Assembly (NCBI GenBank): GCA_937863385.1
Contig: CALMBW010000009.1
Coordinates: forward strand, 1 to 64,000
DNA length: 64,000 bases
Direction: 5' to 3'
Source of the DNA: an uncultured Actinomycetes bacterium
GTDB taxonomy: Bacteria > Actinomycetota > CADDZG01 > WHSQ01
Every line of letters begins with the position of its first letter. Position 1 is the stretch's first letter. Shown one piece after another: positions 19,501 to 61,827 of the stretch. Below the pieces are notes generated by a model. It did no database searches, had not been told where the DNA came from, and worked only from the letters and a program-made list of their open reading frames with translations. The translations under genes and the position numbers were made by a program.

Positions 19501-20337
19501 CCCACGGTCGCGATCGACACCTTCGACGTCGGTACCGAGGCGGTGGGCATCTCGTGGACGGCGAGTGATGCCGACGGTGACGAACTGACCTACGCGCTCG
19601 ACTACAGCACCGACGGCGGCGCAAGCTGGGCCCCGGTCGGCTTGGGGCTGACGGCGAAGACCGCGAGCGTCGCCTTGGCAGACCTCGCCGCGTCCGACAC
19701 GGCGATGCTGCGCGTCAGCGCCAGCGACGGCTTCCTCTCGAGCTCTGCGCAAACGTCTGCGTTCGTGGTCGGCGAACATGCTCCGCAACTGTCTGTGATC
19801 AACGATCCGTCGTTCCGCGCCTACCTCCCCGGTCAAGAACTGTTCGCCGAAGTCGCCGCCTTCGATACGGAAGATGGGTTGCTCGCCGGGAGCTCGATCG
19901 AATGGTCATCGGACCGCGACGGAGTGCTCGCAACGGGGGCCGTGCTGAGCGTCGACACTGGATCTTTGTCTGTGGGTGAGCATCTCGTGACCGTCACTGC
20001 AATCGATGCTGCCGGCCGCTCGGATTCGATCGAGCTGCCGGTGACCGTGTTCGGATCGAGCGCGGAGCTGCCGGCGTGCCGGGGTCAGGTCGCAACCCTC
20101 GTAGGAACCTCGGCGAGTGACACGATCCGCGGCGGGCGAAGCCCTGAAGTGATCTTCGGCGGTGGTGGCGGGGATTCGATCTTCGGCGGCAAAGGTGCAG
20201 ACACGCTGTGCGGTGGCGGCGGGCGTGACCGGCTCGATGGGGGGCCGGGCAAAGACTCTTTCGATGGGGGTCCCGGGAGCGACGCATGTATCGGGCCGCG
20301 CAAAGAGAACCGCATCTCCTGCGAAGCCCGTAGTTAA
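16555..20337 (+). CDS. Secreted RTX-repeat protein with embedded metzincin protease
   Basis: A 1,260-residue extracellular protein. The signal peptide (MLVAIALALPLVAASGQMALA) is followed by calcium-binding RTX nonapeptides (GGDGDDVI, GGAGDDLI, GGPGNDTM) to about residue 390, a beta-rich region resembling CARDB/DUF11-type domains (SDVWISMTPEPG and on), then a zinc protease domain with HEFTHVMGRSH at about residue 785, the HExxHxxGxxH metzincin motif, and a Met-turn DLMSYC at about 850. Ig/FnIII-like domains follow (DGDELTYALDYSTDGGASW), and a second RTX block (GGGGDSIFGGKGAD) closes the chain. GGGAGGG precedes the GTG start. It is probably exported, folds on calcium and degrades external protein. 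Confidence 0.87.
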   Translation: MQRRLGRVGTKRVQAMLVAIALALPLVAASGQMALAAGCLGRSPTIFGTPNNDTLQGTPGDDVIAGGDGDDVINGLGGNDRLCGGAGDDLIDSGEGLDRLDGGPGRDTVTFATATDGVFAHLGADGPARSSFDEFEGIENLTGSPFNDRLAGGPARNVIDGGGGDDRLLWYPSDTYNDQWIGGDGTDVADYSRAPGPVTASLEAGTATVAGASTGTDALASIEDISGSAFTDDLTGDNFRNVISSFIREAVAGDDDVIFGGEGNDQLSGTAGAVRLEGGGGQDSLIAYGYDAMELDGGEDDDFVGFANKKLHTFGVTTTIEGGAGNDLMYGTNNHDNMFGGPGNDTMIGEYGNDVLDGGADSDAGNGNTGNDVCIDVESPASCAQGDTADDGTVGTDGPPAFSDVWISMTPEPGSKRGGEYRVVVGNIGPDTAEVGAMLYFGGRVTEVSSVYGGCLGPSPGDVFRTDVQCSFTLGPGQDRTLSIKVNESRIARPIHTAVAYNLLFDPTMLYLAPAIDDTWDNNTATIGAQNLQLTGLEITQGIQSLRNDVVLVSERATLVRAYVESLGGRFELAEAKLKGRILGGANLGEVTARNPIDVREDPQRKLVTQSFLFELPQSWVASTHGGAYTLEVSFEGVGRKYTCSDELEDCRADVTVVSDQPTPRIVFVGIDYAVNNRVKVSNIQTATTAFKQLRDVVPISTVDLVYFKPAGPPVQGAPDDIIDFDELWLYLESMRILRGCMGLVPDCIYAGIMVDTSIDGVAGLGMGGSFVAYAGGHPHWTVGHEFTHVMGRSHTDCPEMLPQPFENYPYPDGILSDPLEGPDAYYGTSVYNGAAIPTIYQPSETHDLMSYCDPVWTSDYTWSALLSGILAEFRAPVPRRSLAPVADALVLQGRVSADGTGSFEQGLRGTAELSAQGQGDASIRFVGAGGAELSSHVLQLQTNETGESLFVAALDPPAGTAAVELVIAGSVEDRIEVSAAAPTVAIDTFDVGTEAVGISWTASDADGDELTYALDYSTDGGASWAPVGLGLTAKTASVALADLAASDTAMLRVSASDGFLSSSAQTSAFVVGEHAPQLSVINDPSFRAYLPGQELFAEVAAFDTEDGLLAGSSIEWSSDRDGVLATGAVLSVDTGSLSVGEHLVTVTAIDAAGRSDSIELPVTVFGSSAELPACRGQVATLVGTSASDTIRGGRSPEVIFGGGGGDSIFGGKGADTLCGGGGRDRLDGGPGKDSFDGGPGSDACIGPRKENRISCEARS

Positions 20338-30833: not shown

Positions 30834-31499
30834 ATGGATTCTGCCGAACCTGTGAAGGTAGTTCTAGTCGATGACCACGACCTGATCCGTCGCGGCATCC
30901 GGGTGATGCTCGAAAGCGAAGAGGGCATCGAGATCGTGGGTGAAGCCAGTGACGGATCCAAGGTCCTTGCGTTGGTCGAAGAGACCTTCCCCGATGTCGT
31001 CGTGATGGATGTGGTCATGCCGGGCAAAGACGGCATCGACACCACGGCCGAGATCAAGGACAACTTCCCCAACGTCGGCGTCGTAGTGCTCTCGGGCCAC
31101 GACGAGCAGCAGTTCATCTTCGACGCGCTGAAGGCCGGGGCGTCCGGCTACCTGCTGAAGACCGCCGACCTCGATGACGTGATCTCGACCGTTCGTGCAG
31201 TTGCCAAGGGCCAAGCCAAGATCGACCCCGAAGTTGCCGCCAAGGTGCTCACCGAATTCCAGAACTACCAGCAGGCAGAGCTCACCGATCAGTACCAACC
31301 GCTAACGCCACGCGAGCGCGAGATCCTTCAAGCGATGTCCGAGGGATTGCCCAACAAGACCATCGCCACTCGCCTATCGATCTCGGAACGCACCGTCACC
31401 ACGCATGTCGCCAACATCTACACGAAGCTTCAGGTCAACAACCGCGTATCGGCTATCCAAGAAGCGATGCGCCGGCGCATCCTCGACCTGGGCATCTAG
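30834..31499 (+). CDS. NarL/FixJ-family response regulator
   Basis: A 221-residue two-domain regulator. The receiver domain has the acidic pocket DDHD (13-16), phospho-acceptor Asp59 in VVMDVVMPG, and Lys in LLKTADL. The C-terminal LuxR-type HTH is LTPREREILQAMSEGLPNKT to RTVTTHVANIYTKL. No histidine kinase is adjacent, so it is an orphan whose kinase is elsewhere or which acts without one. It is next to, but convergent with, the membrane-protein cluster at 31.5-40.8 kb. Confidence 0.92.
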   Translation: MDSAEPVKVVLVDDHDLIRRGIRVMLESEEGIEIVGEASDGSKVLALVEETFPDVVVMDVVMPGKDGIDTTAEIKDNFPNVGVVVLSGHDEQQFIFDALKAGASGYLLKTADLDDVISTVRAVAKGQAKIDPEVAAKVLTEFQNYQQAELTDQYQPLTPREREILQAMSEGLPNKTIATRLSISERTVTTHVANIYTKLQVNNRVSAIQEAMRRRILDLGI

Positions 31500-31520: not shown

Positions 31521-33338
31521 CTATCCCTCCTCCAGGTCGGGGTTGAGCAGATAGCTGGCTGCGAGCCAGGCTGCCAGGGGCAGACCCAGATAGAAGTAGC
31601 CGACGTCGGCTAGTTGCTCGGAATCGTCGACCGCGTGCACGACCACGAACCAGTGAAAGATCGTCACCGACAGCAACAGGTAGCCGACCCAGAGAAGAGA
31701 CCGGCTCGCCTGCGGGAGCGAGCGCGAGCTGCGTGCGGTGAACTGGCAGTCGCCCAACAGCGAGAACCCGATGCCGAAGACGACGATCAGAACCTCCGGC
31801 AGGCCGATCGCCCGGCCCCCGATACTGATCCAGTCCCCCTTGGTCATCACCAACCACGAGAACAACACGATCGCGAGCCCCGTCACTGCCTGGAGCGAAG
31901 TCAGCCTCGCCCACCGCATCCCCACGAAGACGGCCACGGCAAGCGTCAGCAGGATGTCGAACAACCCATCATGGAAACCGAGCTGTATGTCGAGAGCTTC
32001 GATCACGACCGAGGGCAGCACCCAAGCGCCTATCAGAAGCACCCCGGCCCCCAACTGGCGCCGCGCCGCGGCGCTGGTTGTCGGGGTGGCGCCGGGGGGC
32101 CGTTCGCGCAACAGATAGAGGCCCAGCAGCACCGTGGCAGCGGCCATGACTATCCGTCCGTACTGATAGACGCCGGTCGTGGGGAAGTCCCGGACCAGCT
32201 GGTAACCGGACGAGTTCGATAGCTGCACGGTAAGGAACACGCCGAGTGACACAACGAGCATGGACAACAGCGTCGGAGCAGACAGCATGAAGCTCGATCC
32301 ATACAGCAACCGTTCCTTGTTGAGATCGGTAGCCTCCTCGTTACTGCGATAGCGAGAGATCCACCAGCCGGCCAGTGCCAGGGCGCCAACCGACAGCAAC
32401 GTGCGCACCACCGACACGGGCCGCCGCTGGATGTAGGTGACCCACTCCGACACCGGGAACAATTGAACCGCCAGCTTTGCCGCGACGACGCCGGCCAGCA
32501 GGACCTTCACCGAACGGGCTGCCAAGGTCCGTCCAGACAGAGCGATGCCTTTGGCGACATCCAGCCCGAAGTCGATAACAAGAAGGCCCGAGGCGAATAT
32601 CAGCGGGGTGAGCAACCCCCGCACGTCGTTCACCGATCCCGACACCAACGCCGCGGTGTGTGCGTCGAAACCTTCGTCGATGAACGCTAGGTGCACCCAC
32701 AGGTGCGTCATGAACATCACGGCGATCGCGACCGACACGAGCATCAAGAACGCCCACCGCAAGCGGCGGGAGAGGGCTCCGGGGATCAAACAGCTCAGGA
32801 TCAGCAATCCTGGAACGACGAAGTACGCGGTCCGGATCATCTCGGGCCCGAACTTCAGTGCCAGCGAATCCCCGATCTCGAACGCTGCTGCCTGTCCCAG
32901 GGATGCGGTCGTTGCCATGAACAACAGCGCCACCAGTACGCGCACCCAACGGGCTCCGTGCAATGCGCCGATCGCCAGCACGATCCAAGCCACCGCCAGG
33001 GCAACGAGCGTTACCGGAAGCACGCCGACCGGCAGGAATTCGGGCCGCCCCGAGGAGGTGTCGAGGAACAGCAACTCACCCTGTCGCCACCGCTCGGAGA
33101 ACAGCACCGAGATGAGTAGCAGCACGAGCATGCTCACGCCCACGATCGCAACCTGACGGATCGGCTTGGACATCCCCTTCAGACGCAGGTGGCCATCTTC
33201 GACCGGGTCTTTGAAAGCCGTCTCCCACACCGGCCGCAACGAGAGCCTCGCTCCCGCCGCGCCGGTCCCCGAAGCCGTCCCGCCGGGGACGCGGGCAGTG
33301 GGGGTTGCGGGGGTCTCGGTGGAGGAGTCATCGCTCAT
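31521..33338 (-). CDS. Polytopic membrane protein of unknown function
   Basis: A 605-residue protein with a disordered N-terminus (TETPATPTARVPGG) and about 14 hydrophobic helices starting near residue 62 (QVAIVGVSMLVLLLISVLF). Long stretches such as LLTPLIFASGLLVIDFGLDVA and LPEVLIVVFGIGFSLLGDC are membrane segments; no transporter or enzyme family was recognised. Its ATG overlaps the stop of the propeller gene by four bases (ATGA), so the two are translationally coupled and probably interact. It is the last gene of the six-gene membrane cluster. Confidence 0.75.
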   Translation of the reverse strand: MSDDSSTETPATPTARVPGGTASGTGAAGARLSLRPVWETAFKDPVEDGHLRLKGMSKPIRQVAIVGVSMLVLLLISVLFSERWRQGELLFLDTSSGRPEFLPVGVLPVTLVALAVAWIVLAIGALHGARWVRVLVALLFMATTASLGQAAAFEIGDSLALKFGPEMIRTAYFVVPGLLILSCLIPGALSRRLRWAFLMLVSVAIAVMFMTHLWVHLAFIDEGFDAHTAALVSGSVNDVRGLLTPLIFASGLLVIDFGLDVAKGIALSGRTLAARSVKVLLAGVVAAKLAVQLFPVSEWVTYIQRRPVSVVRTLLSVGALALAGWWISRYRSNEEATDLNKERLLYGSSFMLSAPTLLSMLVVSLGVFLTVQLSNSSGYQLVRDFPTTGVYQYGRIVMAAATVLLGLYLLRERPPGATPTTSAAARRQLGAGVLLIGAWVLPSVVIEALDIQLGFHDGLFDILLTLAVAVFVGMRWARLTSLQAVTGLAIVLFSWLVMTKGDWISIGGRAIGLPEVLIVVFGIGFSLLGDCQFTARSSRSLPQASRSLLWVGYLLLSVTIFHWFVVVHAVDDSEQLADVGYFYLGLPLAAWLAASYLLNPDLEEG

Positions 33339-36202
33339 GGGCCGGTCACCTCCAGACGTTCGAAGGCGGATGCTTGGATACCGGTCGAAGGGATGTAGAC
33401 GTCGTCACCCACCTGGGCGACCGCGGGGACCGTTTCGTAACCGGGGCCGGCCGGCTCGAAGGCACCCAAAAACGCTCCCGTCTGCAGGTCGTAGATGTAG
33501 ACGCGATAAGAGCGCTGGAAGAGATCTTCGTCGCGCGCCTCGTTGAGCACCAGGACCCGGCCATCTTCGATCACCGGCGCAGCAGCGGGGCCGTCGGGCA
33601 GGTTCACGTTCCACAGCTCGGCCCCCGTAAGAGCGTCATAGGCGTTCACCGCGCCATCGCTCTCGATGGTGACCGTTACGCCCTCGCTCGTGACCGGACC
33701 GACGAAGATGTCGAGATCGAAAGAAGGCTTCGCCCACAACGGTGTCCCGTCGCGCGTATCGAGTGCCAGCAGATTCAGCTCGCCGGAGGGATCTCCGCCG
33801 GCGAAATAGATGATGCCGTTGTCTTCTTCGATCGGAGCGAAGGTCTCGAGCCCGGGCAGACCCCACACCTGCTTGCCACGCTCGTTTAGGCGGAACAGAC
33901 CGCCCGATGCGTACACGACCCCATCTTCGAGCACCGCCGGTTGTCCGCTTCCGACACCCGGATACGAGTGGCGCCACAACACCCGGCCGGTCAGAGCATC
34001 CAAAGCCACCAGGCCCTCGCCTTGTTCGGGGACGTAGAAGACCCCGTCGCCTCCGATTCCGACGGCACCGGGGTAAGCAGCCGCTCGGACCTCCGTGCTC
34101 CAGATCTCTTCACCGTCAAGGAAACCGCGTACGGTGTTGTCGCCTTGGCTGGCGAACACCTCTCCTTGCGCGGTCGAGGCCGACGCCACGAAGGAGATCA
34201 GGGTCTCTTCAGACGTGAACTCGGGTGGGACCGCGGCCGGGGCCTCACCGGTGGCATCGGGTGGGACGACGTAGAAGCTTTGATCCGTGCCCCCGACATA
34301 GATCGTTCCGTCCGAGGCGATCGCCGGAGCGAGCCCCGGACTGGTCGGGATCGCGTAGCTTTCGGATCCCACGACAACACCGGCTGCTTCCTGATCGTCG
34401 GTGAGCAGATAGATCATGTTGCGCCCCGCCTCGTCCTCTTGTACTGCGGTCACCAAGATCCCGCTCTCGGACACGACGAGTGGCAGGTCCACAGAGATCT
34501 CCTCGATACCAACCGGAACGGGCAGCTCGAAGCGGTCGAGTCTTTCACCGGTGGCGGCATCGATGACCGTGAGCTCACCGGCTTCCGACATGGTCACGAC
34601 CTGCTCCCCCACCAAGACCGGAGGGACATCGGTGGAGCCGACAGTGGCCCGCCATGCGATCTCGCCCTCGGTTGTCAGCGAGAAGACCTCGTCAGACTCG
34701 GTGAGGATGACGACGTGCTCCGAAGCGACAGCAGCGCCGTCTACGCGGTCCAGAAACGTCTCGGACCACAGCAGTGCACCATCGCGCACGTCGTAAGCGT
34801 ACGTAGCCCCCCCGTTGTCCGCGGCGATGACGAACTCGTCGTTGCCGGCAAGCTCGCCGCGCGCGACCTGCTCCATCTCGGCGCTCCACACCGTCTCTCC
34901 ATCCTGAAGATCAAGAGCCGTGAGACGTCCGGCGTCATCGACGACCACGACCGCATCGCCAGCAACAAGCGGCGCTCGGCGAGAGATACCTCCGAGCTCC
35001 GTGCTCCAGATACGCCGGCCATCTGATACATCGATCGCTTCGACGGTGTTGGCGTCGGTCGTTAGGTATGCGACACCATCGGAAACGGCGGGCTTGCTGG
35101 CCGCAACGTCGTTGAAGGCGACCGACCATCGCGCCCATCCTCCGGCCGCATCGATCGCATACAGAGCGCGCAACGGATCTGCCACCAAGACGATGTCGTC
35201 GGTGACAACGGGAGCCGTTACCAGCGGGGCTTCGAGCTTGATCGACCAGATCGTTTCGCCTGTGGTCATGTCGGTGGCTGCGAGCCGCCCATCTTGCTCG
35301 GCGGCAAACATCGTCTTGCCGTCGGTTGCGGGAGCGAAGACCACGTTCTGCGAACCTGTGATGGTCCATGCCGGAGCACGCGAAAGGTCTGCCGCATCCA
35401 ACTCACCTGAAGCCACCGCATCAGTTGGCGGCATCGGAATATCGGCAGGGCTTACCTCTCCGAAACTCTCCTCGGCCCCCACGAACGCGATCAGTTCTTC
35501 CTCCAAGACGATGCCGAGTGTCTCTAGAACGTCGACGATCTTGACGGTGCCGACCCCGGCGCATCGCCATTCATCGACCGTCTCACGCTGCTCTTGGTCG
35601 CCGGTCCCAAGGACGATCTTGCTACGGACGTGCGCGCACCCCTCGTAGTCGCGGCCCCCCGCAGAAACGTCCTCGAGTCCTACGTTGCTGACATCGAAGA
35701 CGACCTCGGTCCCGGCCAGGTCGCCCTCGTAGCGATACTCCGACTCTCTGTCAAAGGGCGGGTCAAGCAACTTCACGGCGGGAGTGAAGGCGCTGAAGTC
35801 CCCACCCGACCGCAAGCCAAGTTGCGCGATCGCGTCTCCTCTACCGGCCAGGTAGGTCGTGCTGGTGAAGGGTTCACCGCGGCCCAGGTAATCCTCGTAG
35901 AGATTACGGACCGCATAGCCTTCACCACCGTAGAGGGCGAGATTGACCTTGCCTGCGACCTGACGAAAGTGGCGGCCGGCAGGCTTCGAGTCCACCGTGG
36001 TCTCGTAGACCCACGTCGTGCCAAGGTCTATCGGCTCGAAAGACTTCACGACCTCGAGCGGGTCATCGGGTTGAGCCACCACGACCGAGGTCGCCAGCAT
36101 CGCTCCCGCGAGAAGCGAGCCGGTTAACCAAGGCCATGCAGCGCGCCACGAACGCGACCGGCGTGAAACGACGACCGTTCCGTCCTCGGCTGGTTCAGCC
36201 AT
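33335..36202 (-). CDS. Membrane-anchored PQQ-type beta-propeller protein
   Basis: A 955-residue protein: a short cytoplasmic N-terminus, one membrane helix (WPWLTGSLLAGAMLATSVVVA, about 22-43), a globular domain (LGTTWVYETTVDSKPAGRHF to about 250) and a long array of PQQ/BamB-like propeller blades (LAATDMTTGETIWSIKLEAP, LTALDLQDGETVWSAEME, LVALDALTGRVLWRHSYPG). The blades contain the AxDxxTGxxxW signature. The dehydrogenase active-site residues are not evident, so a binding scaffold is more likely than a quinoprotein enzyme. The propeller would face outside. Translationally coupled with the polytopic protein, and 18 bases after the PrsW-type protease gene. Confidence 0.85.
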   Translation of the reverse strand: MAEPAEDGTVVVSRRSRSWRAAWPWLTGSLLAGAMLATSVVVAQPDDPLEVVKSFEPIDLGTTWVYETTVDSKPAGRHFRQVAGKVNLALYGGEGYAVRNLYEDYLGRGEPFTSTTYLAGRGDAIAQLGLRSGGDFSAFTPAVKLLDPPFDRESEYRYEGDLAGTEVVFDVSNVGLEDVSAGGRDYEGCAHVRSKIVLGTGDQEQRETVDEWRCAGVGTVKIVDVLETLGIVLEEELIAFVGAEESFGEVSPADIPMPPTDAVASGELDAADLSRAPAWTITGSQNVVFAPATDGKTMFAAEQDGRLAATDMTTGETIWSIKLEAPLVTAPVVTDDIVLVADPLRALYAIDAAGGWARWSVAFNDVAASKPAVSDGVAYLTTDANTVEAIDVSDGRRIWSTELGGISRRAPLVAGDAVVVVDDAGRLTALDLQDGETVWSAEMEQVARGELAGNDEFVIAADNGGATYAYDVRDGALLWSETFLDRVDGAAVASEHVVILTESDEVFSLTTEGEIAWRATVGSTDVPPVLVGEQVVTMSEAGELTVIDAATGERLDRFELPVPVGIEEISVDLPLVVSESGILVTAVQEDEAGRNMIYLLTDDQEAAGVVVGSESYAIPTSPGLAPAIASDGTIYVGGTDQSFYVVPPDATGEAPAAVPPEFTSEETLISFVASASTAQGEVFASQGDNTVRGFLDGEEIWSTEVRAAAYPGAVGIGGDGVFYVPEQGEGLVALDALTGRVLWRHSYPGVGSGQPAVLEDGVVYASGGLFRLNERGKQVWGLPGLETFAPIEEDNGIIYFAGGDPSGELNLLALDTRDGTPLWAKPSFDLDIFVGPVTSEGVTVTIESDGAVNAYDALTGAELWNVNLPDGPAAAPVIEDGRVLVLNEARDEDLFQRSYRVYIYDLQTGAFLGAFEPAGPGYETVPAVAQVGDDVYIPSTGIQASAFERLEVTGP

Positions 36203-36220
36203 CTCGTACCGCCGAAACTG

Positions 36221-37336
36221 CTAAGAAGCGTGGATCGCCTGGCGCGCGCGGATCTTGCGGATCCTGTCCCGGTGCACGTCTACGACGGTCTGGTCGGCAC
36301 CGCGGCGTCTCACCCGCCACTTGGCGAAGGCAAGATCGGCCATCTCGCGATGTGCCTCACTGACGAGCTTGAGGGTCTCGAACTGAGCCTGGCGAACGAG
36401 CTGCCAGTACCACTTGGTCCGATCAAGGAAGTTCGGAACGATCGCCCACTCCTCCTTGGTGATGGTCCCGTTGTTGACCTCTTCTGCAAGCTCGAAAGCG
36501 ATGACCTTCTTCTGGTGGCGCACCCAAAGGAAGATGGCCGTGAAGAACGCTATGACGAAGGACGTGTCCAGCAGGTTCGTCATGCTCTCGGCGCTGGCAA
36601 CGGTTGCATTCATGCGCTCGATGACCTCGACCGGCAACAGGCCACCGGAGTAAGCCGCAGCGGTCGCCTCGAGCCCGAATTCGCGCACCATCATGATCGA
36701 CTGGGTCCCGTTGTGAAGGAAGTGCATGAACATGCCGGCAGCCAGACCCGCGAGCGGCCATCCGATCTGCCCTCGCTTGGTCGCCGCCCAGGTTCCCATC
36801 CCAAGCCCCGCACCGAACGTACCCGTGTAGATCGCGTGTCCGAAACTGCCGAGGCCGAAGAAGTCGACCCGCAACAAGAACACGTCGAGGCCAGTCTTCA
36901 CGTCGGCCTGACTGAGGAAGTTGAAGAAGTAGAGGATGTCCTCGGTGAAGGCGAAGCCGAACCCAACCGCGGCACCGTAGACGATGCCATCCGTGACACC
37001 TTCGAACTCCAGCCGGCCCGTCTTCTTGAAGAACCAATGTGAACCGAAGAATGCTAGGAGCAGCGCCAGTCCCTTGATGATCTCTTCGACGAAGGGGGCC
37101 GCGATGGCCGGACCGAACACGATCGAGACGTCTTGGGGGAGGGCCCCGATGATGGCCTCGTTACCGACGATCGCAAGACCGATGGAGAACGTGCCGCCCC
37201 ACAGGCCCATCAGCGCGACCATCCACAGAGGTTCACGCTCGTACGCATCCAGCAAGCGGATGATCACGAAGAACAGCAGCATCTGGATCAGCGCATAAAC
37301 GATGAACATAGCCGGATGCGTGAATGCACTAGCCAC
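36221..37336 (-). CDS. PrsW-family intramembrane metalloprotease
   Basis: A 371-residue polytopic protein. The PrsW active-site motifs are all present: FVEEIIKGLAL (EExxK), FGFAFTEDILYFF, GHAIYTGTFGAGLG and MHFLHNG, the glutamates and histidines expected to hold a metal inside the membrane. PrsW cleaves a membrane-bound anti-sigma factor in Bacillus; relatives are widespread. After the eight or so helices there is a hydrophilic C-terminal part (EEVNNGTITKEEWAIVPNFL) shared with the paralogue at 38478. Substrate candidates in the same cluster are the zinc-ribbon single-TM protein and the propeller. A terminator-like hairpin separates it from the upstream gene. Confidence 0.88.
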   Translation of the reverse strand: MASAFTHPAMFIVYALIQMLLFFVIIRLLDAYEREPLWMVALMGLWGGTFSIGLAIVGNEAIIGALPQDVSIVFGPAIAAPFVEEIIKGLALLLAFFGSHWFFKKTGRLEFEGVTDGIVYGAAVGFGFAFTEDILYFFNFLSQADVKTGLDVFLLRVDFFGLGSFGHAIYTGTFGAGLGMGTWAATKRGQIGWPLAGLAAGMFMHFLHNGTQSIMMVREFGLEATAAAYSGGLLPVEVIERMNATVASAESMTNLLDTSFVIAFFTAIFLWVRHQKKVIAFELAEEVNNGTITKEEWAIVPNFLDRTKWYWQLVRQAQFETLKLVSEAHREMADLAFAKWRVRRRGADQTVVDVHRDRIRKIRARQAIHAS

Positions 37337-37422
37337 TTACTGGTCCCTTCCGTTTGTGGATATCGCGTTCTAGATCCATGTGCCGAACCTCGTTCGATCG
37401 CTCTGAAGCCGTACTTTGAGAA

Positions 37423-37454
37423 CCGGCCCGGGGAAATGGTGTCCCCCGGGCCGG
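37423..37454 (-). terminator. GC-rich hairpin between the zinc-ribbon and PrsW genes
   Basis: CCGGCCCGGGG (37423-37433) and CCCCGGGCCGG (37444-37454) form a perfect 11-bp stem with a ten-base loop, eight bases past the zinc-ribbon gene stop. There is no T-run, so it is probably an attenuator, mRNA-end stabiliser or Rho-type end, reducing rather than blocking read-through. Confidence 0.65.
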
Positions 37455-37461
37455 CACGGTT

Positions 37462-38478
37462 CTAGGTGCCTGCCAGGATGTTGTTGAAGAACTCGGTCGC
37501 GTAGCCAAAGTTGGATTCACCCCACGCGAAGAGCCCGCCATTGGTCCACAGCCAGATCTCGTCGGGCCCAGTGAGGTTCACACCGGTACCGAGGTAGACC
37601 CCGTTGGGATCGGTGATGTCGACCGTCTGCGCGACCGTGTAGTCGTAGTTGGCCTGCATCCGGCCCACCATCGAGTCCAGCCCGGCCAGGGCACCGTCGG
37701 GATCGCTGTAGGCGAGCAACGCGCCATTGAGGGGTGTGCCGTCGGCATGCCCATAGCTCAACGAGAAGGCGTCATTCGCGCCGAGGTTGGCGGCGAGTTG
37801 CGGATCCTGGACCGCTTCGATCAGCTGGAAGCTGCCTGCGAACTCGGGGATCAGCGAACCCAGATCACCCGCAGGAGCAACCGGCTCTTGCTCGGGCTGA
37901 GCCGGCTCGGCCGGAGCGGCTGGTTCGGCCGGGCCGGGATCGGCCGGGGCGCCGTTGTCCGGGGCCGGAGGAGGAGCCACGGGCTCGTCCTTGCCCTTGA
38001 AGAGGAAGAAACCGGCCACCACGACGACGAGCGCCACCGCACCACCGGCCATCGCCATCGTCTTGCCCGACGTCTTGGAGCCGCCGGCAGGCGCCATGCT
38101 GAAGCCTCCCGGAGGTGGCGCGCTGACCGCAGGAGCGACGGCAGCAGCGGTCGCCGGCTCGGCAGCAGCAGGTGCCGGCGTTGCTGCCGCCGGAGTAGCT
38201 GCAACCGGTTCGGCCACCGGCGGCGTTGTCACTGGAGCCTGTTCAACCGTGGCAGCGGCCACGGTTTCTTGGGCCAGCGTCTCGGCCGCTGCGTTACCGG
38301 CCGCGTGTGCTTCTTCGGGTGTCACCGGCGGTGCCACCGCGGCCCCCGGAGGAGCGAAACCACTCGCGGCCGGCGTCTCAACCGGCGTTGCTTCGGGCGC
38401 CTTGGCGCCACAGCTCGGACAGAAGCCTGCACCATCGGGGATCACGGTGCCGCAGCTTGTGCAGTGACGGGTTGTCAT
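37462..38478 (-). CDS. Zinc-ribbon, single-TM protein with extracellular domain
   Basis: A 338-residue protein: cytoplasmic N-terminal zinc ribbon (CTSCG and CPSCG, residues 6-24), an Ala/Pro/Thr-rich linker of about 110 residues, one membrane helix (about 142-160, MAGGAVALVVVVAGFFLFKG), another Pro/Glu-rich stretch (PAEPAAPAEPAQPEQEP) and a C-terminal globular domain (LGSLIPEFAGSFQLIEAVQD) reminiscent of small DUF4245-like extracellular domains. The ATG at 38478 overlaps the upstream PrsW-like stop as TGATG. A membrane protein with a cytoplasmic ribbon is the kind of substrate an intramembrane protease would release. Confidence 0.75.
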   Translation of the reverse strand: MTTRHCTSCGTVIPDGAGFCPSCGAKAPEATPVETPAASGFAPPGAAVAPPVTPEEAHAAGNAAAETLAQETVAAATVEQAPVTTPPVAEPVAATPAAATPAPAAAEPATAAAVAPAVSAPPPGGFSMAPAGGSKTSGKTMAMAGGAVALVVVVAGFFLFKGKDEPVAPPPAPDNGAPADPGPAEPAAPAEPAQPEQEPVAPAGDLGSLIPEFAGSFQLIEAVQDPQLAANLGANDAFSLSYGHADGTPLNGALLAYSDPDGALAGLDSMVGRMQANYDYTVAQTVDITDPNGVYLGTGVNLTGPDEIWLWTNGGLFAWGESNFGYATEFFNNILAGT

Positions 38479-39527
38479 CAGACCGTCACCCCCTGGTTGC
38501 CACGGCCGCGCCGGGCTACATACAGCTCGCGAGCTTGAGCGATCGTCCCGCGCAGGACCGCGCACTCGGCTTCGATCTCAGCACGTCCCGCGGGATCGGT
38601 CTCGTGATGCAACCTGTCTTTCGCCAGGGCGAGCTGCACCTGAAGGTTATGGAGCGAGCGAAGCGCGGCCCATCCATCGAAATCGAAGCCGAAGAAGTGC
38701 GACATGTGCTCGGAACGACGCCGTCCGAGATTGGTCAGGGCCTCGTATTCGTTCTGCGTGACCACGCCAGCCGCGACCTCGTCGGCGAGATTGGTCTTTA
38801 TCGCCTCACTCTCACGCTTGAGATCCATGACCGCGACCACCCCGAGGGCAACCAGCGGCAGCAGCAGGGCGAGCCACTTGCGGAAGGTGGCAGCACCTCC
38901 GGCGAGAGCGTCTCCCTGGGCGAGCTCGGTGTAGAGCACGTGAGCGCCCACGGCGGCAAGGAAGCCGGCCAGCGGAAGGACCCAGCGCATGCTCTTGTGC
39001 CGGCTGATGACCGCCACACCGAAGAACGCTCCCGCGATAGCACCAAACATCCCGTCGGACAGACCCGTGAGCAGCGCGCTCCACAGGTCGGAACCCGGAG
39101 ACGAGGTGACCCCATCGATCAAGCTCGACGACGTCGACAACTCTCGGACCAGCACCTCCGCCGTTGCGAATCCCAATCCGGCGGCGGTTCCATAGACGAT
39201 CCCGTCCAGCAACCCTGCGAACTCCGAGAAGCCTCTCCAGCGCGAGATGCCGGTGAAAACTCCGACCGCGGCAGCGAGACCCAGGAAGCGACCGGTCTCG
39301 GACCAGAACGGTCCCCAGAAGAAGTTGAGGGAAAGGGTGGTGCTGTCGACAAGCAGGTGGACGGCCCCGGCCCCCACGGCCCCGAAGGCGAACGCAACTC
39401 CGATCGCCCACAGCGGTTCCTTCTCGTTCAGGTCCAAGAACCTGACCAGCACGATATAGATCGCAGCAACGACCACAGCTAGTGCCAGGGCGTAGCCGCT
39501 GTCTACTTGACCCAGCGCAAGCGTCAT
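38478..39527 (-). CDS. PrsW-like membrane protein lacking key protease residues
   Basis: A 349-residue paralogue of the 36221 protease: LDGIVYGTAAGLGFATAEVLV aligns with TDGIVYGAAVGFGFAFTEDIL, and the C-terminal cytoplasmic region with VTQNEYEALTNL matches ITKEEWAIVPNF. However, the EExxK motif is not present (FWSETGRFLGL in its place), and the first histidine site reads LSDGMFGAIAGAFFG instead of FGHAIYTGTFGAGLG. The second glutamate and last histidine (GAHVLY) remain. I infer a pseudoprotease, perhaps a regulator or partner of the active one. Overlaps the zinc-ribbon gene. Confidence 0.75.
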   Translation of the reverse strand: MTLALGQVDSGYALALAVVVAAIYIVLVRFLDLNEKEPLWAIGVAFAFGAVGAGAVHLLVDSTTLSLNFFWGPFWSETGRFLGLAAAVGVFTGISRWRGFSEFAGLLDGIVYGTAAGLGFATAEVLVRELSTSSSLIDGVTSSPGSDLWSALLTGLSDGMFGAIAGAFFGVAVISRHKSMRWVLPLAGFLAAVGAHVLYTELAQGDALAGGAATFRKWLALLLPLVALGVVAVMDLKRESEAIKTNLADEVAAGVVTQNEYEALTNLGRRRSEHMSHFFGFDFDGWAALRSLHNLQVQLALAKDRLHHETDPAGRAEIEAECAVLRGTIAQARELYVARRGRGNQGVTV

Positions 39528-39749
39528 CCGTCCGCCTCTCTTCGACCAAACCGCATTGGAGCGCGACGCGCACTAGACGCATACCGCCCGACGAGATAGT
39601 AGGTACCTGGGCTTCGGTTCTCAATGCTTTCGCGCGAGATTGGTCATTAGGTACTAGTGCCGTATCGCGCAAGGCAACTCGCGCTCTCGCCATCCGTGAT
39701 GGCTAGAGCCCGGCGCTCACCCTCTCGCTGCCTGCGGACTACCTACCGG

Positions 39750-40835
39750 TCAAGCAGTAGCGGAGGGCACCGACCGCTGCCTAAGGAACCCAAGCACTCC
39801 GATGCCGAGTGCCAGTCCCATGAATACCCAGGCCCAGAACAACCGCCCGCTGCTCCATACCCACCAGCCCGCCATCAGTCCGGCAAGCACGCTGGGGACC
39901 CACTTCCACTTCTGCGGATCCACGGGCGGCACGCGGAAACTCGCCCACAGGATGATGAACAAGAGTCCGGCTATCACGAGCTCGCTGAAGCGCAAGGTAC
40001 GCCCCGGGAAAGAAGAACCACCGATGTACGAATTGAACGCGTCGTACTCGAGCCCGCCGGTGTAGTAGTTGTAGTCGTACCCGCCAGCGTAGAAACCTGC
40101 CGAGTCCGAGAAGTCAAAGAAGAATGTGACGATCGCGACGGCAGCGACCAGGGTCAGCGGGCGGTTGGCTCCCGAGATGGCGTTGCTCAGATCGAAATTG
40201 GTTCCGAATCGAGCACGGGCCCGGCGGTACTGCTCGTAGGCGAGAGCGATGGCTCCGGCGGTCCACAGCACCCCAACCAAGCTGATATCGAACATGCGCA
40301 GAGCGTGCCCGGCCACCACGACCGTGAAGACGATCGGGAACAGCGGGTGCATGAGGGGGCCGGGGATCGCCGGGAGTTTCTGTTGCTGATACCCGGCTCG
40401 GCTCAGTTCCTGGATCGCTACCAGTGCCATCGCAGCCGCCATGACCGCTGCCCAGATCCAACCGAGACCTGCGTTGTCCCCGATGAACCCCACCACGATC
40501 GCTATGGCTACGAGGCCCAAAGCCACGAGCGTCAAGGAGCGGCCCGGCACCTTGCCCAGCAGTTCCGACGACGAGGTGAACCGCTGCGCCTGCGCCGCCA
40601 CCTTCGAGACGTTGCTTTCGATCCGCTCCTTGAAGGGTTGCTGTTCGCCCGCCACCGCCTGCATCGGCTGCGTCGACCCACCTGGCTGGGCCGGTGTTGG
40701 CTGGGCCGGTGTTGGCTGGGCCGGTGTTGGCTGGGCCGGTGTTGGCTGGGCCGGCGCCTCTACCTTGGTCCCACAACTGGGACAGAACGCCGGAAGCGGT
40801 TCGGGCAGCTTGTTGCCGCAACTCATGCAGAACAT
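39750..40835 (-). CDS. Zinc-ribbon multi-TM protein
   Basis: A 361-residue protein: N-terminal zinc ribbon (CMSCG and CPSCG), a PAQPT repeat linker of five units, an amphipathic stretch (KERIESNVSKVAAQAQ), and about eight membrane helices (TLVALGLVAIAIVVGFIG, WAAVMAAAMALVAIQEL). A Tyr/Gly-rich loop (FYAGGYDYNYYTGG) lies between helices. The ATG at 40835 is selected by the GGAGGGGG site ahead; the longer frame runs into the SelA gene on the other strand. First gene of the membrane cluster, separated from the PrsW-like gene by 222 bases (39528-39749) in which I see nothing. Confidence 0.75.
   Translation of the reverse strand: MFCMSCGNKLPEPLPAFCPSCGTKVEAPAQPTPAQPTPAQPTPAQPTPAQPGGSTQPMQAVAGEQQPFKERIESNVSKVAAQAQRFTSSSELLGKVPGRSLTLVALGLVAIAIVVGFIGDNAGLGWIWAAVMAAAMALVAIQELSRAGYQQQKLPAIPGPLMHPLFPIVFTVVVAGHALRMFDISLVGVLWTAGAIALAYEQYRRARARFGTNFDLSNAISGANRPLTLVAAVAIVTFFFDFSDSAGFYAGGYDYNYYTGGLEYDAFNSYIGGSSFPGRTLRFSELVIAGLLFIILWASFRVPPVDPQKWKWVPSVLAGLMAGWWVWSSGRLFWAWVFMGLALGIGVLGFLRQRSVPSATA
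40684..40755. repeat. 15-bp coding tandem repeat
   Basis: Four perfect copies of GGCTGGGCCGGTGTT and a fifth near-copy encode, on the minus strand, the PAQPT linker units of the zinc-ribbon protein. A multiple of three, so length variation would keep the frame. Confidence 0.9.
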
Positions 40836-40894: not shown

Positions 40895-42256
40895 GTGAAC
40901 GAACAGAGCAAGTACCGAAAGCTCCCTTCGGTTGACGTCGTCTTGGATCAGCTCGCGGCGCCGCATCATGTCGCCGTGCAAGCGGCTCGGGCAGCGATAG
41001 AGGAGGCTCGCCAAGAGGTTGCGGCGGGCCGGCCCGCCCCCACCGTTGCACAAGTAGTAGCGAAAGCGCGACTCGCTCTGGCCGGGGACGAGCGCCGCCG
41101 CTTGCAGCGCGTCATCAACGCGACCGGCATCTTGTTACACACCAACCTGGGGCGCGCCCCTCTCGGCCCCCAACAACTCGAAGCCGTACGTGCGGTGGCA
41201 TCCGGCTACTCGAACCTCGAATTCGATCTGGGCACCGGCAAGCGTGGCTCGCGCTACACGCACACCCGTGCTGCGATCTGCCGTCTGACCGGGGCCGAGA
41301 GCGCGCTGGTCGTCAACAACAACGCGGCGGCGGTCCTGCTGATGCTCTCAGCGCTCTGCCGCGGCAAAGAGGTGATCATCAGCCGCGGTGAACTGATCGA
41401 GATCGGCGGCGAGTTCCGCATCCCGGACGTGATGCGCAATGCCGGTGTGACCCTTGTCGAAGTCGGCACGACCAATCGCACCCATCCATCCGACTACGCT
41501 GGTGCGATCGGACCACGAACCGCGGCGATCTTCAAAGTGCATCCTTCCAACTACAAGATGATCGGTTTCACCAAGGATGTGCCGGGCCGTGAGCTCGGAC
41601 GCCTCGCTGCAAACAACGGTCTGCTGTTCCTTCACGATCTTGGTTCCGGGAACCTCGAGGCGTCACCCGGCTCGCCATTCAGACACGAACCGACGATCCT
41701 CGATGCGTTGACCGACGGCGCGGACCTGGTCACCTTCTCGGGCGACAAATTGCTGGGTGGGCCTCAAGCAGGTGTGATCGCAGGCAAGACGACCCTGATC
41801 GACCAACTCGAACGTGACCCATGGCTGCGCGCCTTGCGCGTCGACAAGATGACGCTTGCCGCTCTGGGCGCCACCCTGGAGCTCTACCTGATGGATCTGA
41901 GCAGCAACATCCCGATCGCGCGCATGGCTCATATGTCGCTGCACGACCTCGAAGCGCGCGCCAAAGCGCTCGCATCTGCGATCGACGACCCCGATGCGGG
42001 GCGAAAAGCTTCGGCTGTCGCCGTGACCGGTGCAGCCGGGGGCGGGGCATTGCCCGGAGAAGGGTTCGACTCTTGGGCCGTCGCGGTCGAGTGCGAGCAT
42101 CTCTCCGCGCAAGCGATCGCCGAGGCGCTGCGTCTCGGCGACCCTCCGGTCATCGCTCGCATCGAGAACGACCGTCTCCTTCTGGACCTACGCACGATCG
42201 CCTCCGAAGATGACTCCCTGGTGGCACGACTGGCGGGCCGGGTCTTTTCCCCGTAG
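40895..42256 (+). CDS. selA: L-seryl-tRNA(Sec) selenium transferase
   Basis: PLP enzyme that turns seryl-tRNA(Sec) into selenocysteinyl-tRNA(Sec) using selenophosphate. 453 residues, the usual size. Family marks: N-terminal RKLPSVDVVLDQL, INATGILLHTNLGRAPL, FDLGTGKRGSRYTH, LVVNNNAAAVLL, GELIEIGGEFRIPDVM, HPSNYKMIGF and the PLP lysine in TFSGDKLLGGPQAG. The GTG at 40895 follows GAGGTG at the proper distance and begins the homologous region; the reading frame upstream overlaps the zinc-ribbon gene. selB is 5 kb downstream. selD and tRNA(Sec) were not found in the window. Confidence 0.95.
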   Translation: MNEQSKYRKLPSVDVVLDQLAAPHHVAVQAARAAIEEARQEVAAGRPAPTVAQVVAKARLALAGDERRRLQRVINATGILLHTNLGRAPLGPQQLEAVRAVASGYSNLEFDLGTGKRGSRYTHTRAAICRLTGAESALVVNNNAAAVLLMLSALCRGKEVIISRGELIEIGGEFRIPDVMRNAGVTLVEVGTTNRTHPSDYAGAIGPRTAAIFKVHPSNYKMIGFTKDVPGRELGRLAANNGLLFLHDLGSGNLEASPGSPFRHEPTILDALTDGADLVTFSGDKLLGGPQAGVIAGKTTLIDQLERDPWLRALRVDKMTLAALGATLELYLMDLSSNIPIARMAHMSLHDLEARAKALASAIDDPDAGRKASAVAVTGAAGGGALPGEGFDSWAVAVECEHLSAQAIAEALRLGDPPVIARIENDRLLLDLRTIASEDDSLVARLAGRVFSP

Positions 42257-47127: not shown

Positions 47128-47226
47128 CCCACCTTCAGCAAGAAACAGCACTGCACGTAGCCGCGGGACCCTGCATCGCGGCATCCGGTCATGTGGGGCC
47201 GCGGGCGTGGGACTTATCGTTTGACG

Positions 47227-49056
47227 ATGCACGTACTTGGAACCGCTGGTCATGTCGACCACGGAAAGTCCACCCTGGTGCGGTCGCTCACCGGGATCGA
47301 TCCCGACCGCCTGGCCGAGGAACGACAGCGTGGACTGACGATCGACCTTGGCTTCGCATGGTTGATGCTGCCTTCGGGCAGAGAGGTTGGCGTCGTGGAC
47401 GTGCCGGGTCACGAACGGTTCATCTCCAACATGCTCGCGGGGGCCGGCGGGATCACTGCTTGTCTCTTCGTCGTTTCCGCCAGTGAGGGCTGGATGCCCC
47501 AGTCGACCGAACACCTGGCGATCCTGGACCTACTCGGCATCGAGCACGGAGTTGTGGCGCTTACCAAAGCGGACCTGGTCGACGCCGGGCGTCTCGCGCG
47601 GATGGAAGCTTCGGTGCGAGAGCGGCTGGCTCCAACCGGACTGCATGATGCGCCGATCGTCGCGGTGTCTGGGGTCGATGACACCGGACGCTCCGAGCTA
47701 CTGACAGTGCTAGACGAGATGTTGTCTCGGGCACCGGTGCCCCCAGCGCATGGTTCGCCACGGATGTGGGTGGATCGTGCCTTCGCGGTGTCAGGGGTGG
47801 GAACCGTCGTTACCGGAACGGTGGCTCGGGGACGTTTCGAGTTGGGCGGGGCGGTCGAGGTACTGCCGGGTGGAGCGACCGCCCGTATACGAGCGCTGCA
47901 GTCTCACAAGAAAAAGGTCGATTCGATAGCAGCGGGTACCCGGGCCGCCATCAATCTCATCGGTATCTCTGGCTCCCAACTCCGTGGGCGCGCCGTCGTG
48001 GGGGCCGGGTGGCATTGCACCAACACGGTGGATGTGATGCTGCAGGTGCCGGTGCGGGAGCTAGGGGGTGTTGGGATCGAGGCTCGCGGTGCGCACCTTC
48101 TTTACGTCGGTTCGGCCAGCACCCCGGTTCGGGTGAGACCCCTCGATCGTGACCGCGTGGAACCCGGCTCGAGCGCTCCGGCCACCCTCTACCTTTCCGA
48201 GGGGCTGCCTCTGAGGGCTGGGGACAGGATGGTGATCCGCGATTCGGGGCCGGGCATCACCGCAGCAGGCGCCACGGTGTTGGATCCGGCCCCCCCAGCA
48301 ACTCGCCGCCGAGATCGTGCGCGGATCGAGACACTGCTGCAACTTGCCGGGTGCGCAAGTGTCGCCGAGCGGCTCGGCGTGCTGGTTGACTCGGAAGGTG
48401 ACCTCGCGATCTCAGACGCCCGGTGGCGGGCGGGAGTCGTTGGCGACGAGGAAGTCACGCTCCCTTCGGACATGAAGGTGCTCGGCGACCGCTACGTCTC
48501 ACTGCAAAGACTGCACGAGTTAGAGCAGCTCGTCATGGATGCCGTTACCACTCACCATGCCGATCATCCGGGCGAGCGGGGGCTTGGCCGCGAGGTCGTG
48601 CGGTCGGCCACCGGGCTCGAAAGGGCCGCCTTCGATGCACTCGTGCACTCGCTGGGTCTAGCCGGAACCGAAACGCTCGCGCTGGCTTCACATTCGCCGG
48701 CATTGCCTCCCGAGTTGCGCGCTCAAGCAGACGCGCTGCTGGCGCGCTTGGCGAACTCGGCCTTCGAACCACCGCTCGCTGCACAACTCCAGGTCAGCGA
48801 TGAGCTGCTGCGCGCATTGGTCACCTCCGGCGAGATCGTCCGGGTAGGGACCTTCTATCTGGACGCCGGCCATGCACAGCGGGCACGACAGATCGTGCGG
48901 GATGAGATCAAGGCTGCCGGTCCCGTGACCGTCTCTAAGATCCGGGACCTTCTCGGAACCACGCGCAAGTACGCGGTGCCACTGTCGGAGTGGCTCGATG
49001 ACACCGGTGCGACGATCAGGCGGGGAGATCTTCGCCACCTCGGTCCACAGGGATAG
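47227..49056 (+). CDS. selB: Selenocysteine-specific elongation factor
   Basis: GTPase that delivers selenocysteinyl-tRNA(Sec) to UGA codons marked by a SECIS hairpin. 609 residues. GTP motifs GTAGHVDHGKST, DVPGHERF and LTKAD; GLTIDLGFAW is the SelB switch region. Domains II-III follow to about 370 (FAVSGVGTVVTGTVARG, VQ-type AATLYLSEGLPL), then the SECIS-binding winged helices to the end (VSKIRDLLGTTRKYAVPLSEWLD). The ATG at 47227 gives the expected MHVLGTAGHVDHG start. Its gene is not adjacent to selA: two secreted hydrolases lie between. No selenoprotein with an internal TGA was identified here. Confidence 0.95.
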   Translation: MHVLGTAGHVDHGKSTLVRSLTGIDPDRLAEERQRGLTIDLGFAWLMLPSGREVGVVDVPGHERFISNMLAGAGGITACLFVVSASEGWMPQSTEHLAILDLLGIEHGVVALTKADLVDAGRLARMEASVRERLAPTGLHDAPIVAVSGVDDTGRSELLTVLDEMLSRAPVPPAHGSPRMWVDRAFAVSGVGTVVTGTVARGRFELGGAVEVLPGGATARIRALQSHKKKVDSIAAGTRAAINLIGISGSQLRGRAVVGAGWHCTNTVDVMLQVPVRELGGVGIEARGAHLLYVGSASTPVRVRPLDRDRVEPGSSAPATLYLSEGLPLRAGDRMVIRDSGPGITAAGATVLDPAPPATRRRDRARIETLLQLAGCASVAERLGVLVDSEGDLAISDARWRAGVVGDEEVTLPSDMKVLGDRYVSLQRLHELEQLVMDAVTTHHADHPGERGLGREVVRSATGLERAAFDALVHSLGLAGTETLALASHSPALPPELRAQADALLARLANSAFEPPLAAQLQVSDELLRALVTSGEIVRVGTFYLDAGHAQRARQIVRDEIKAAGPVTVSKIRDLLGTTRKYAVPLSEWLDDTGATIRRGDLRHLGPQG

Positions 49057-54421: not shown

Positions 54422-55195
54422 CTACCCTTCGGTGCCTTTCGTGGGATTGAAGGCTGCGTCGAACCCTTTCAGCAGCTCTACGGGCAGCGGGATGACGATG
54501 GTGGAGTTCTGTTCCGCCGAGATGTCGGTGAGGGTCTGCAGATAGCGAAGCTGGTAGGCGATCGGGTGGCGGGCGATGACCTCGGCCGCTTGAGCCAACC
54601 GCTCGGACGCTTGGAACTCACCTTCGGCGTTGATGATCTTGGCCCGCCGCTCACGCTCGGCTTCAGCCTGCTTGGCCATAGCGCGCTGCATCTCGACCGG
54701 GAGGTCGACGTCTTTGATCTCGACCAGCGTCACCTTCACACCCCACGGGTCGGTTAGGTCATCGATTATCTGTTGGACATCTTGGTTCAGGCGATCGCGC
54801 TCGGTGAGGATGTCATCGAGGTCGACCTTGCTGAGGATCGCTCGCAAGGTGGTTTGTGCGATCTGCGAAGTCGCGTAGAGATAGTTCTGGATCTCGACGA
54901 TGGCCTTGATCGGGTCGAACACTTGGAAGTAGACGACCGCATTGACCCGGATGGTGATGTTGTCCTTGGTGATGACGTCCTGTGGGGGCACGTCCAAGGT
55001 CACGACCTGCAGGTTGACCTTGACCATGCGATCGATGATCGGGATCAGCAGGAACAGTCCCGGCCCCTTCGCGTTTCCGAGCACACGTCCTAGCCGGAAG
55101 ATGACCCCTCGTTCGTACTCTTGAACGATCCGGATCGATGCAGCCAGGAACAACAACACGAGGATCGCGATCGACCCGAGTACCGCTGGTCCCAT
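54422..55195 (-). CDS. Stomatin-like SPFH protein (slipin)
   Basis: A 257-residue membrane-scaffold protein: N-terminal hydrophobic hairpin ([20 protein letters not shown]), SPFH domain ([60 protein letters not shown]) and a short coiled coil ([21 protein letters not shown]). GGAGGTGGG lies ahead of the ATG. Slipins usually work with a long NfeD protein encoded next to them; here that NfeD (60235) is 5 kb away with three secreted/signalling genes between. Confidence 0.92.
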
Positions 55196-55297
55196 CGGTT
55201 ACCCACCTCCATCTGTGACGGCCCCAGCTTGTCGGGGGCCGCGCCCATCCCAGAGTACGACCCGAACTGGTTAACCGCGAAAGCGAAGGGGTGAGGG

Positions 55298-56530: not shown

Positions 56531-56554
56531 CCGCCTGCTCGCTTCCTCTTGTCC

Positions 56555-60078: not shown

Positions 60079-60234
60079 GACTCTGGCTCCTGGGACTAGA
60101 AGCAATGCAGGGGGCAGAGGTTTGCCCTCGCAATCACAGAGTCCTACCCCCCGAAAGAGGGTTTGGCACGGGACGAAAGCACGGGAAGTACTAGGTCTCT
60201 AGCAGGCCAAGCGAAATCCCGGACCCACCTGGGT

Positions 60235-61689: not shown

Positions 61690-61827
61690 ACCTCCAATGG
61701 TCGCATCCCACAGACCCGGCGCAGTCACGCCCGGAAGGGCGCACCCACGATGATCGACTCTCGGCGAGAAGAAGCGTGGTGGTTCTCGACTTCTTCGCCA
61801 CGAGTTGAGGTGGGTTAGAAAGGCCGG

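What the first reader, a model, noticed from the sequence alone, without database searches (positions are those of the whole stretch)
31521..40835. Membrane cluster with a PrsW protease, a PrsW-like pseudoprotease, two zinc-ribbon membrane proteins and a propeller
Seen: six minus-strand genes, with direct overlaps at 38478 (TGATG) and 33335 (ATGA) and an 18-base gap at 36203-36220, encode in order a zinc-ribbon multi-TM protein, a degenerate PrsW, a zinc-ribbon single-TM protein, an intact PrsW, an anchored PQQ-type propeller and a 14-TM protein. Known: PrsW cleaves a membrane anti-sigma factor in Bacillus. Inference: the single-TM zinc-ribbon protein could be cut by the PrsW, with the propeller as the outside sensor and the pseudoprotease as regulator. 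I know no described system with this set of parts. No sigma/anti-sigma pair is present, so the output would differ from the Bacillus pathway.
Basis: partly seen in the sequence, partly recalled or inferred. Interest (0 to 1): 0.72.

Follow-up and report, generated by a model that had tools for sequence, protein, structure and literature searches.

The report
PrsW protease beside its inactive twin
One bacterial genome carries a membrane-cutting protease next to a copy of it that has lost its cutting residues and is tightly paired with a zinc-binding membrane protein; this may be a split form of a known signalling arrangement, but no other genome examined has the same set of genes.

Summary
The 36221 protein is an intact PrsW (PF13367, 120 bits) with all seven catalytic-motif residues. 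The 38478 protein is a diverged PrsW (46 bits) that folds like one (AlphaFold2 pLDDT 87) but has lost the first Glu and the Lys of EExxK, the third-motif His and the Asn of HxxxN. These are the genome's only two PrsW proteins. The set is not one operon. It divides into a zinc-ribbon multi-TM gene alone, pseudo-PrsW plus zinc-ribbon single-TM protein (TGATG overlap), and PrsW plus propeller plus multi-TM protein, with a strong GC hairpin before the last group. The arrangement is not conserved: 48 other PrsW loci of the phylum hold one PrsW each, and none has a zinc-ribbon or adjoining propeller neighbour. Four of the six proteins have no or few detectable relatives. PrsW fused to zinc ribbons is already described (PMC3482391), and a same-family genome holds a zinc-ribbon/degenerate-PrsW/zinc-ribbon fusion. 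Most likely this is a split PrsW/zinc-ribbon envelope-signalling module, the pseudo-PrsW being a scaffold for the TcaA-like zinc-ribbon protein. The propeller is at least as good a substrate candidate. Function is untested.

The parts
39750..40835 (-). P0001: N-terminal zinc-ribbon-like motif (CX2CX11CX2C), PAQPT repeats, then about 7 TM segments; probably its own transcription unit, divergent from selA
   Evidence: no relative in 246 genomes of the phylum
38478..39527 (-). P0003: PrsW-family pseudoprotease (E84->S, K88->R, H167->D, N209->T in P0004 numbering; second Glu, motif-2 Glu and motif-4 His kept) with the C-terminal helical domain shared with P0004
37462..38478 (-). P0002: N-terminal zinc ribbon (CX2CX10CX2C), Pro/Ala-rich linker, single TM (143-161 numbering), about 130-aa C-terminal domain; TcaA-like layout
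   Evidence: start overlaps the stop of P0003 as TGATG; C-terminal domain has no convincing relative
37416..37459 (-). GC-rich 12-bp stem-loop between P0002 and PrsW, a likely terminator or processing hairpin (no T run)
   Evidence: z -2.74 for the intergenic region; not called by the T-run scan
36221..37336 (-). P0004: intact PrsW-family intramembrane metalloprotease with C-terminal helical cytosolic domain; all catalytic motifs present (EEIIK, FTED, GH, HFLHN)
33335..36202 (-). P0005: N-terminal anchor (25-43), about 200-aa N-terminal domain and a BamB/PQQ-like beta-propeller outside
   Evidence: one full-length relative (31% over 934 aa) in G178, with no PrsW upstream of it
31521..33338 (-). 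P0006: polytopic membrane protein, about 15 hydrophobic segments, no known family, translationally coupled to P0005 (ATGA)

Best explanation
The locus is a split form of the known 'PrsW plus zinc ribbon' signalling-peptidase arrangement. Two adjoining membrane units lie here. In the first, a catalytically disabled PrsW (38478) is translationally coupled to a TcaA-like zinc-ribbon/single-TM protein (37462) and most likely binds its TM helix as a scaffold or guard, as APH-1 and iRhoms do in their systems. In the second, the active PrsW (36221) is made together with an anchored outside propeller (33335) and a polytopic protein (31521). The likely process is that an envelope signal changes the outside domains, and the active PrsW then cuts an N-in/C-out single-pass neighbour (37462 or 33335) near the membrane. 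This would free an outside domain or expose the zinc-ribbon stub inside. Shown: gene anatomy, family membership, catalytic intactness or loss, and tight coupling of the pairs. Inferred: physical complex, cleavage, signal and output.
For: PF13367 hits for both. All catalytic motif residues are kept in P0004, and four of seven are changed in P0003 while hallmark residues D32, E35, E37, D108, G109, Y112, E124 and H196 are kept. P0003 gives a confident PrsW-type model, and its best PDB neighbour is APH-1 at prob 0.98, though with E 0.19. TGATG and ATGA couplings. Both PrsW copies of the genome lie here. A genome of the same family has one protein with zinc ribbon, degenerate PrsW and zinc ribbon, and Zn-ribbon-PrsW fusions are described as signalling peptidases (PMC3482391). 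The CX2CX10CX2C ribbon and layout of P0002 match L. lactis Llmg_0526, itself similar to S. aureus TcaA; the L. lactis operon is linked to the cell wall (PMC4628341).
Against: The arrangement was found nowhere else. None of 23 other genomes of the class has a P0004 relative by BLAST, none of those searched has a P0003 relative, and none of 48 PrsW loci in the phylum has a zinc-ribbon or adjoining propeller neighbour. The hairpin and gaps suggest separate transcripts. P0002 topology is not clear from charge and its model is poor. The APH-1 match follows from the superfamily and says nothing special about scaffolding. No output gene is known.
Confidence: 0.35

Rival explanations
1. Chance neighbourhood: two or three unrelated small membrane units that happen to lie side by side, the duplicate PrsW being a fast-diverging paralogue that stayed near its parent, with no functional link between pseudo-PrsW, PrsW and propeller.
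For: No conservation of the set anywhere. In the family f13 relatives PrsW sits in a different, conserved context. The propeller's relative stands without PrsW upstream. Hairpin and gaps between the units. The tree places P0003 and P0004 as separate long branches, though a joint clade is not rejected (AU p 0.08).
Against: Both of only two PrsW genes of the genome are within 3.5 kb. Overlapping genes within the pairs. A zinc-ribbon/degenerate PrsW fusion in the same family.
Confidence: 0.33
2. The active PrsW processes its operon partner, the anchored propeller 33335 (shedding it or releasing its anchor), with 31521 as membrane partner; the pseudo-PrsW/zinc-ribbon pair is a separate, TcaA-like envelope unit that needs no protease.
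For: 18-base gap PrsW-propeller and ATGA coupling propeller-31521. P0005 is itself an N-anchored single-pass protein. A hairpin separates this unit from P0002.
Against: The propeller homologue in G178 has no PrsW upstream (the downstream side is beyond the contig end). Nothing shows cleavage.
Confidence: 0.22
3. Classical regulated intramembrane proteolysis: P0004 is an ordinary PrsW site-1 protease for an anti-sigma factor coded elsewhere in the genome; its neighbours here are incidental.
For: PrsW of B. subtilis cuts RsiW (PMC4602095, PMC12943098). P0004 motifs are intact.
Against: P0004 is far below the NCBIfam PrsW equivalog cut-off (35.8 against 225 bits). No sigma/anti-sigma pair was seen among the window genes scanned; the rest of the genome was not searched for them.
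Confidence: 0.1

Closest known systems
PrsW/RsiW/sigma-W pathway of Bacillus subtilis
   Same: P0004 is in the same Pfam family with the four catalytic motifs EExxK, FxxxE, H, HxxxN
   Different: No sigma or anti-sigma gene seen nearby; below the PrsW equivalog cut-off; a degenerate second PrsW, zinc-ribbon proteins and a propeller alongside
PrsW domains fused to Zn-ribbon, PilZ, FHA or cNMP domains (described as signalling peptidases, PMC3482391)
   Same: Association of PrsW with cytoplasmic zinc ribbons
   Different: Here separate genes, with one active and one inactive PrsW
S. aureus TcaA and L. lactis Llmg_0524/0526 zinc membrane proteins (PMC4628341)
   Same: N-terminal C4 zinc motif (CX2CX10CX2C in P0002), one TM, outside chain; two zinc-motif membrane proteins in one locus
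   Different: No sequence relationship outside the ribbon was detected; no PrsW in those operons as described
APH-1 (gamma-secretase) and iRhom pseudoproteases
   Same: A catalytically dead member of an intramembrane-protease family beside an active protease; APH-1 is the best fold match to P0003
   Different: Fold match weak (E 0.19, TM 0.37/0.49); no partner complex shown; here the active protease is of the same family

Membership tests
PrsW intramembrane metalloprotease (PF13367) | Profile match over the curated cut-off (23.5 bits) | tested here: met
   P0004 120.4 bits, P0003 45.5 bits
PrsW intramembrane metalloprotease (PF13367), as active enzyme: P0004 | EExxK, E, H and HxxxN motifs intact | tested here: met
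   VEEIIK, FTED, FGHA, HFLHN, as in nearly all the other sequences aligned
PrsW intramembrane metalloprotease (PF13367), as active enzyme: P0003 | EExxK, E, H and HxxxN motifs intact | tested here: not met
   SETGR, AEV, D in place of H, HVLYT; four of seven catalytic residues changed
PrsW equivalog NF033739 / Bacillus sigma-W pathway | Equivalog score of at least 225 bits and an anti-sigma/ECF sigma pair | tested here: not met
   33-36 bits; no such pair among the window genes scanned; whole genome not searched for sigma factors
PrsW polymorphic-toxin export system | C-terminal toxin domain fused to PrsW | tested here: not met
   No toxin domain in Pfam; the C-terminal tail is shared with f13 PrsW proteins
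Zinc-ribbon single-TM proteins of TcaA layout (P0002) | Zinc ribbon over the Pfam cut-off, one TM, C-terminal outside domain | tested here: met
   PF13240 30.0 bits, one hydrophobic segment; that the C-terminal domain is outside is inferred
TcaA family proper (P0002) | Sequence similarity in the outside domain | tested here: not met
   No Pfam or NCBIfam family covers the C-terminal domain
Zinc ribbon (P0001) | Profile score over the cut-off | tested here: inconclusive
   19.3 against 25 bits; four Cys present with X11 spacing
APH-1 / pseudoprotease scaffold (P0003) | Binds an intramembrane protease or its substrate | not testable with these tools
   Only a weak fold match

The most novel reading that the evidence does not exclude
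A bacterial intramembrane-proteolysis system in which an active PrsW is regulated by a dedicated PrsW pseudoprotease that holds a zinc-ribbon single-pass substrate, with no sigma/anti-sigma output: a bacterial counterpart of the iRhom or APH-1 arrangement within one protease family.
Probability: 0.15. Interest if true: 0.75.

Novelty: new variant of a known kind. Interest (0 to 1): 0.4.

Why it matters
I found no paper describing a PrsW pseudoprotease, and PrsW substrates outside Bacillus-type anti-sigma factors are almost unknown. A compact locus with an active and an inactive PrsW beside two single-pass membrane proteins would make the regulation and substrate choice of this protease family testable. 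The degenerate PrsW forms found in two other genomes, one fused to two zinc ribbons, suggest that PrsW pseudoenzymes recur.

Tried and rejected
Neighbourhood conservation: family and class relatives lack close PrsW relatives by BLAST, and 48 phylum PrsW loci lack the partners. Relatives of P0001, P0002 C-domain, P0006: none convincing. The G171 hit to P0002 is a weak match to an unrelated protein, and the P0006 hits run through stop codons. A second PrsW in L109 is one gene split by a frameshift. A 71-aa zinc-ribbon 'neighbour' in L119 is an overlapping false ORF. Genome-contig scan with P0004: one distant Phycisphaerales hit. Plasmids: none. Defence-system library: none. Rfam: none. Whole-protein search with P0002 failed on the server and was repeated with its C-terminal domain. 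Structure of P0002 without relatives was too poor to use (pLDDT 50). In-genome duplication: not favoured but not rejected. Horizontal import by composition: no GC anomaly.

Full report
Observation. All six minus-strand genes are present at the stated places, with the stated overlaps. Third-position GC of 0.74-0.83 supports all six as coding. The two PrsW-family proteins are the only ones in the 2.77-Mb genome. The zinc-ribbon call for the 39750-40835 protein is sub-threshold in Pfam (19.3 against 25 bits), while that of the 37462 protein is above threshold (30.0 bits).

Gene organisation. The six genes are not one tight operon. P0001 stands 222 bases ahead of P0003, and P0003-P0002 overlap as TGATG. 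A 125-base gap with a 12-bp GC stem (intergenic z -2.7, three of 200 shuffles as good) precedes PrsW; PrsW-P0005 are 18 bases apart and P0005-P0006 overlap as ATGA. So the active PrsW is coupled to the propeller and the polytopic protein, and the pseudo-PrsW to the zinc-ribbon single-pass protein. The hairpin has no T run, so its role as a terminator is inference. The cluster is divergent from selA, whose start is near 40895, and convergent with a NarL-type response regulator at 30834-31499.

The pseudoprotease. In an alignment of 51 PrsW proteins, P0004 keeps EEIIK, FTED, GH and HFLHN. P0003 reads SETGR, AEV, D for H, and HVLYT. Of 48 columns nearly invariant in the other aligned relatives, P0003 keeps 28 and P0004 37. 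Of the seven catalytic-motif residues P0003 keeps three and P0004 all. In B. subtilis only the double E75A/E76A and the H175A changes are cited as tested (PMC12943098). P0003 has lost one of the two glutamates and keeps the fourth-motif histidine, so inactivity is likely but not certain. The fold is kept: AlphaFold2 with 34 sequences gives pLDDT 87.3 and pTM 0.84, including a helical C-terminal domain. The best PDB matches include APH-1 chains (prob 0.98, E 0.19, TM 0.37/0.49), as expected from the known PrsW/CPBP/APH-1 superfamily (PMC4602095, PMC3482391).

Origin. Both PrsW proteins branch at the base of a clade of single-copy PrsW proteins of another family of the phylum (handle f13), with the same C-terminal domain. 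P0003 and P0004 do not fall together, but a joint clade is not rejected (AU p 0.08). Long branches make this unsure.

Conservation. None of 23 other genomes of the class has a P0004 relative by BLAST, and those searched have no P0003 relative; a looser family search finds only one weak PrsW-like protein in the class, in G007. In the phylum 82 of 396 genomes have a P0004 relative. In 48 PrsW loci examined there is one PrsW each, no zinc-ribbon neighbour and no adjoining propeller; the one propeller seen lies about 6 kb away on the other strand (L113). P0001, the P0002 C-terminal domain and P0006 have no convincing relatives in 246 genomes. P0005 has one full-length relative, in G178, without PrsW upstream.

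Link between PrsW and zinc ribbons. The weak PrsW-like protein of G007, in the same family as the window genome, is a single polypeptide: zinc ribbon, degenerate PrsW (VAEIVK; third-motif His lost), zinc ribbon. Fusions of PrsW with Zn ribbons and other intracellular sensor domains were described in 2012 as likely signalling peptidases (PMC3482391). The layout and ribbon spacing (CX2CX10CX2C) of P0002 are those of L. lactis Llmg_0526, which resembles S. aureus TcaA; in L. lactis two such zinc proteins share an operon and one is linked to cell-wall integrity (PMC4628341). This supports, but does not show, that the zinc-ribbon proteins here work with the PrsW proteins in the envelope.

Mechanism. 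Most likely, pseudo-PrsW and the zinc-ribbon protein form a complex, and the active PrsW acts on a single-pass neighbour. Two candidates exist, 37462 and 33335; position favours 33335 as partner of the active enzyme and 37462 as partner of the pseudoenzyme. No sigma or anti-sigma gene was seen among the window genes scanned; the whole genome was not searched for them.

Verdict. A real and unusual gene set with a likely PrsW pseudoprotease, but a singleton in the data at hand and with an untested link between its halves. I score interest at 0.4 and file it as a new variant of a known kind.

Noticed in passing
L097:8075-9310 (G007, same family as the window genome): Single 411-aa protein with zinc ribbon, degenerate PrsW and zinc ribbon, divergent from an M4 (thermolysin-like) metallopeptidase gene.
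   Followed up: partly
L089:565-1512 (G303): Another degenerate PrsW-family protein (first Glu to Arg, motif-2 Glu to Asn, HxxxN lost) next to a serine-protease-like lipoprotein gene.
   Followed up: partly
40895-42256 and 47191-49056: selA-like and selB genes flank the cluster on one side, separated by an InhA-like-domain protein and an S15 peptidase; selenocysteine machinery without a tRNA-Sec in the window.
   Followed up: no
54422-61833: Membrane group with SPFH/Band 7, GAF-EAL, subtilase, CAP and NfeD proteins.
   Followed up: no
9763-13476 and 16555-20337: Two large proteins of over 1200 aa with RTX nonapeptide repeats (one also with beta-helix), near a sugar transferase.
   Followed up: no
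40683-40754: Perfect 15-bp tandem repeat (4.8 copies) coding PAQPT repeats in P0001.
   Followed up: no
1-104: 23-bp tandem repeat of 4.5 copies at the window edge.
   Followed up: no
L050-L062 (family f13 genomes): Single-copy PrsW with the same C-terminal domain sits in a recurrent neighbourhood (MobA-like and DMT-transporter-like genes by eye) with no zinc-ribbon genes.
   Followed up: partly
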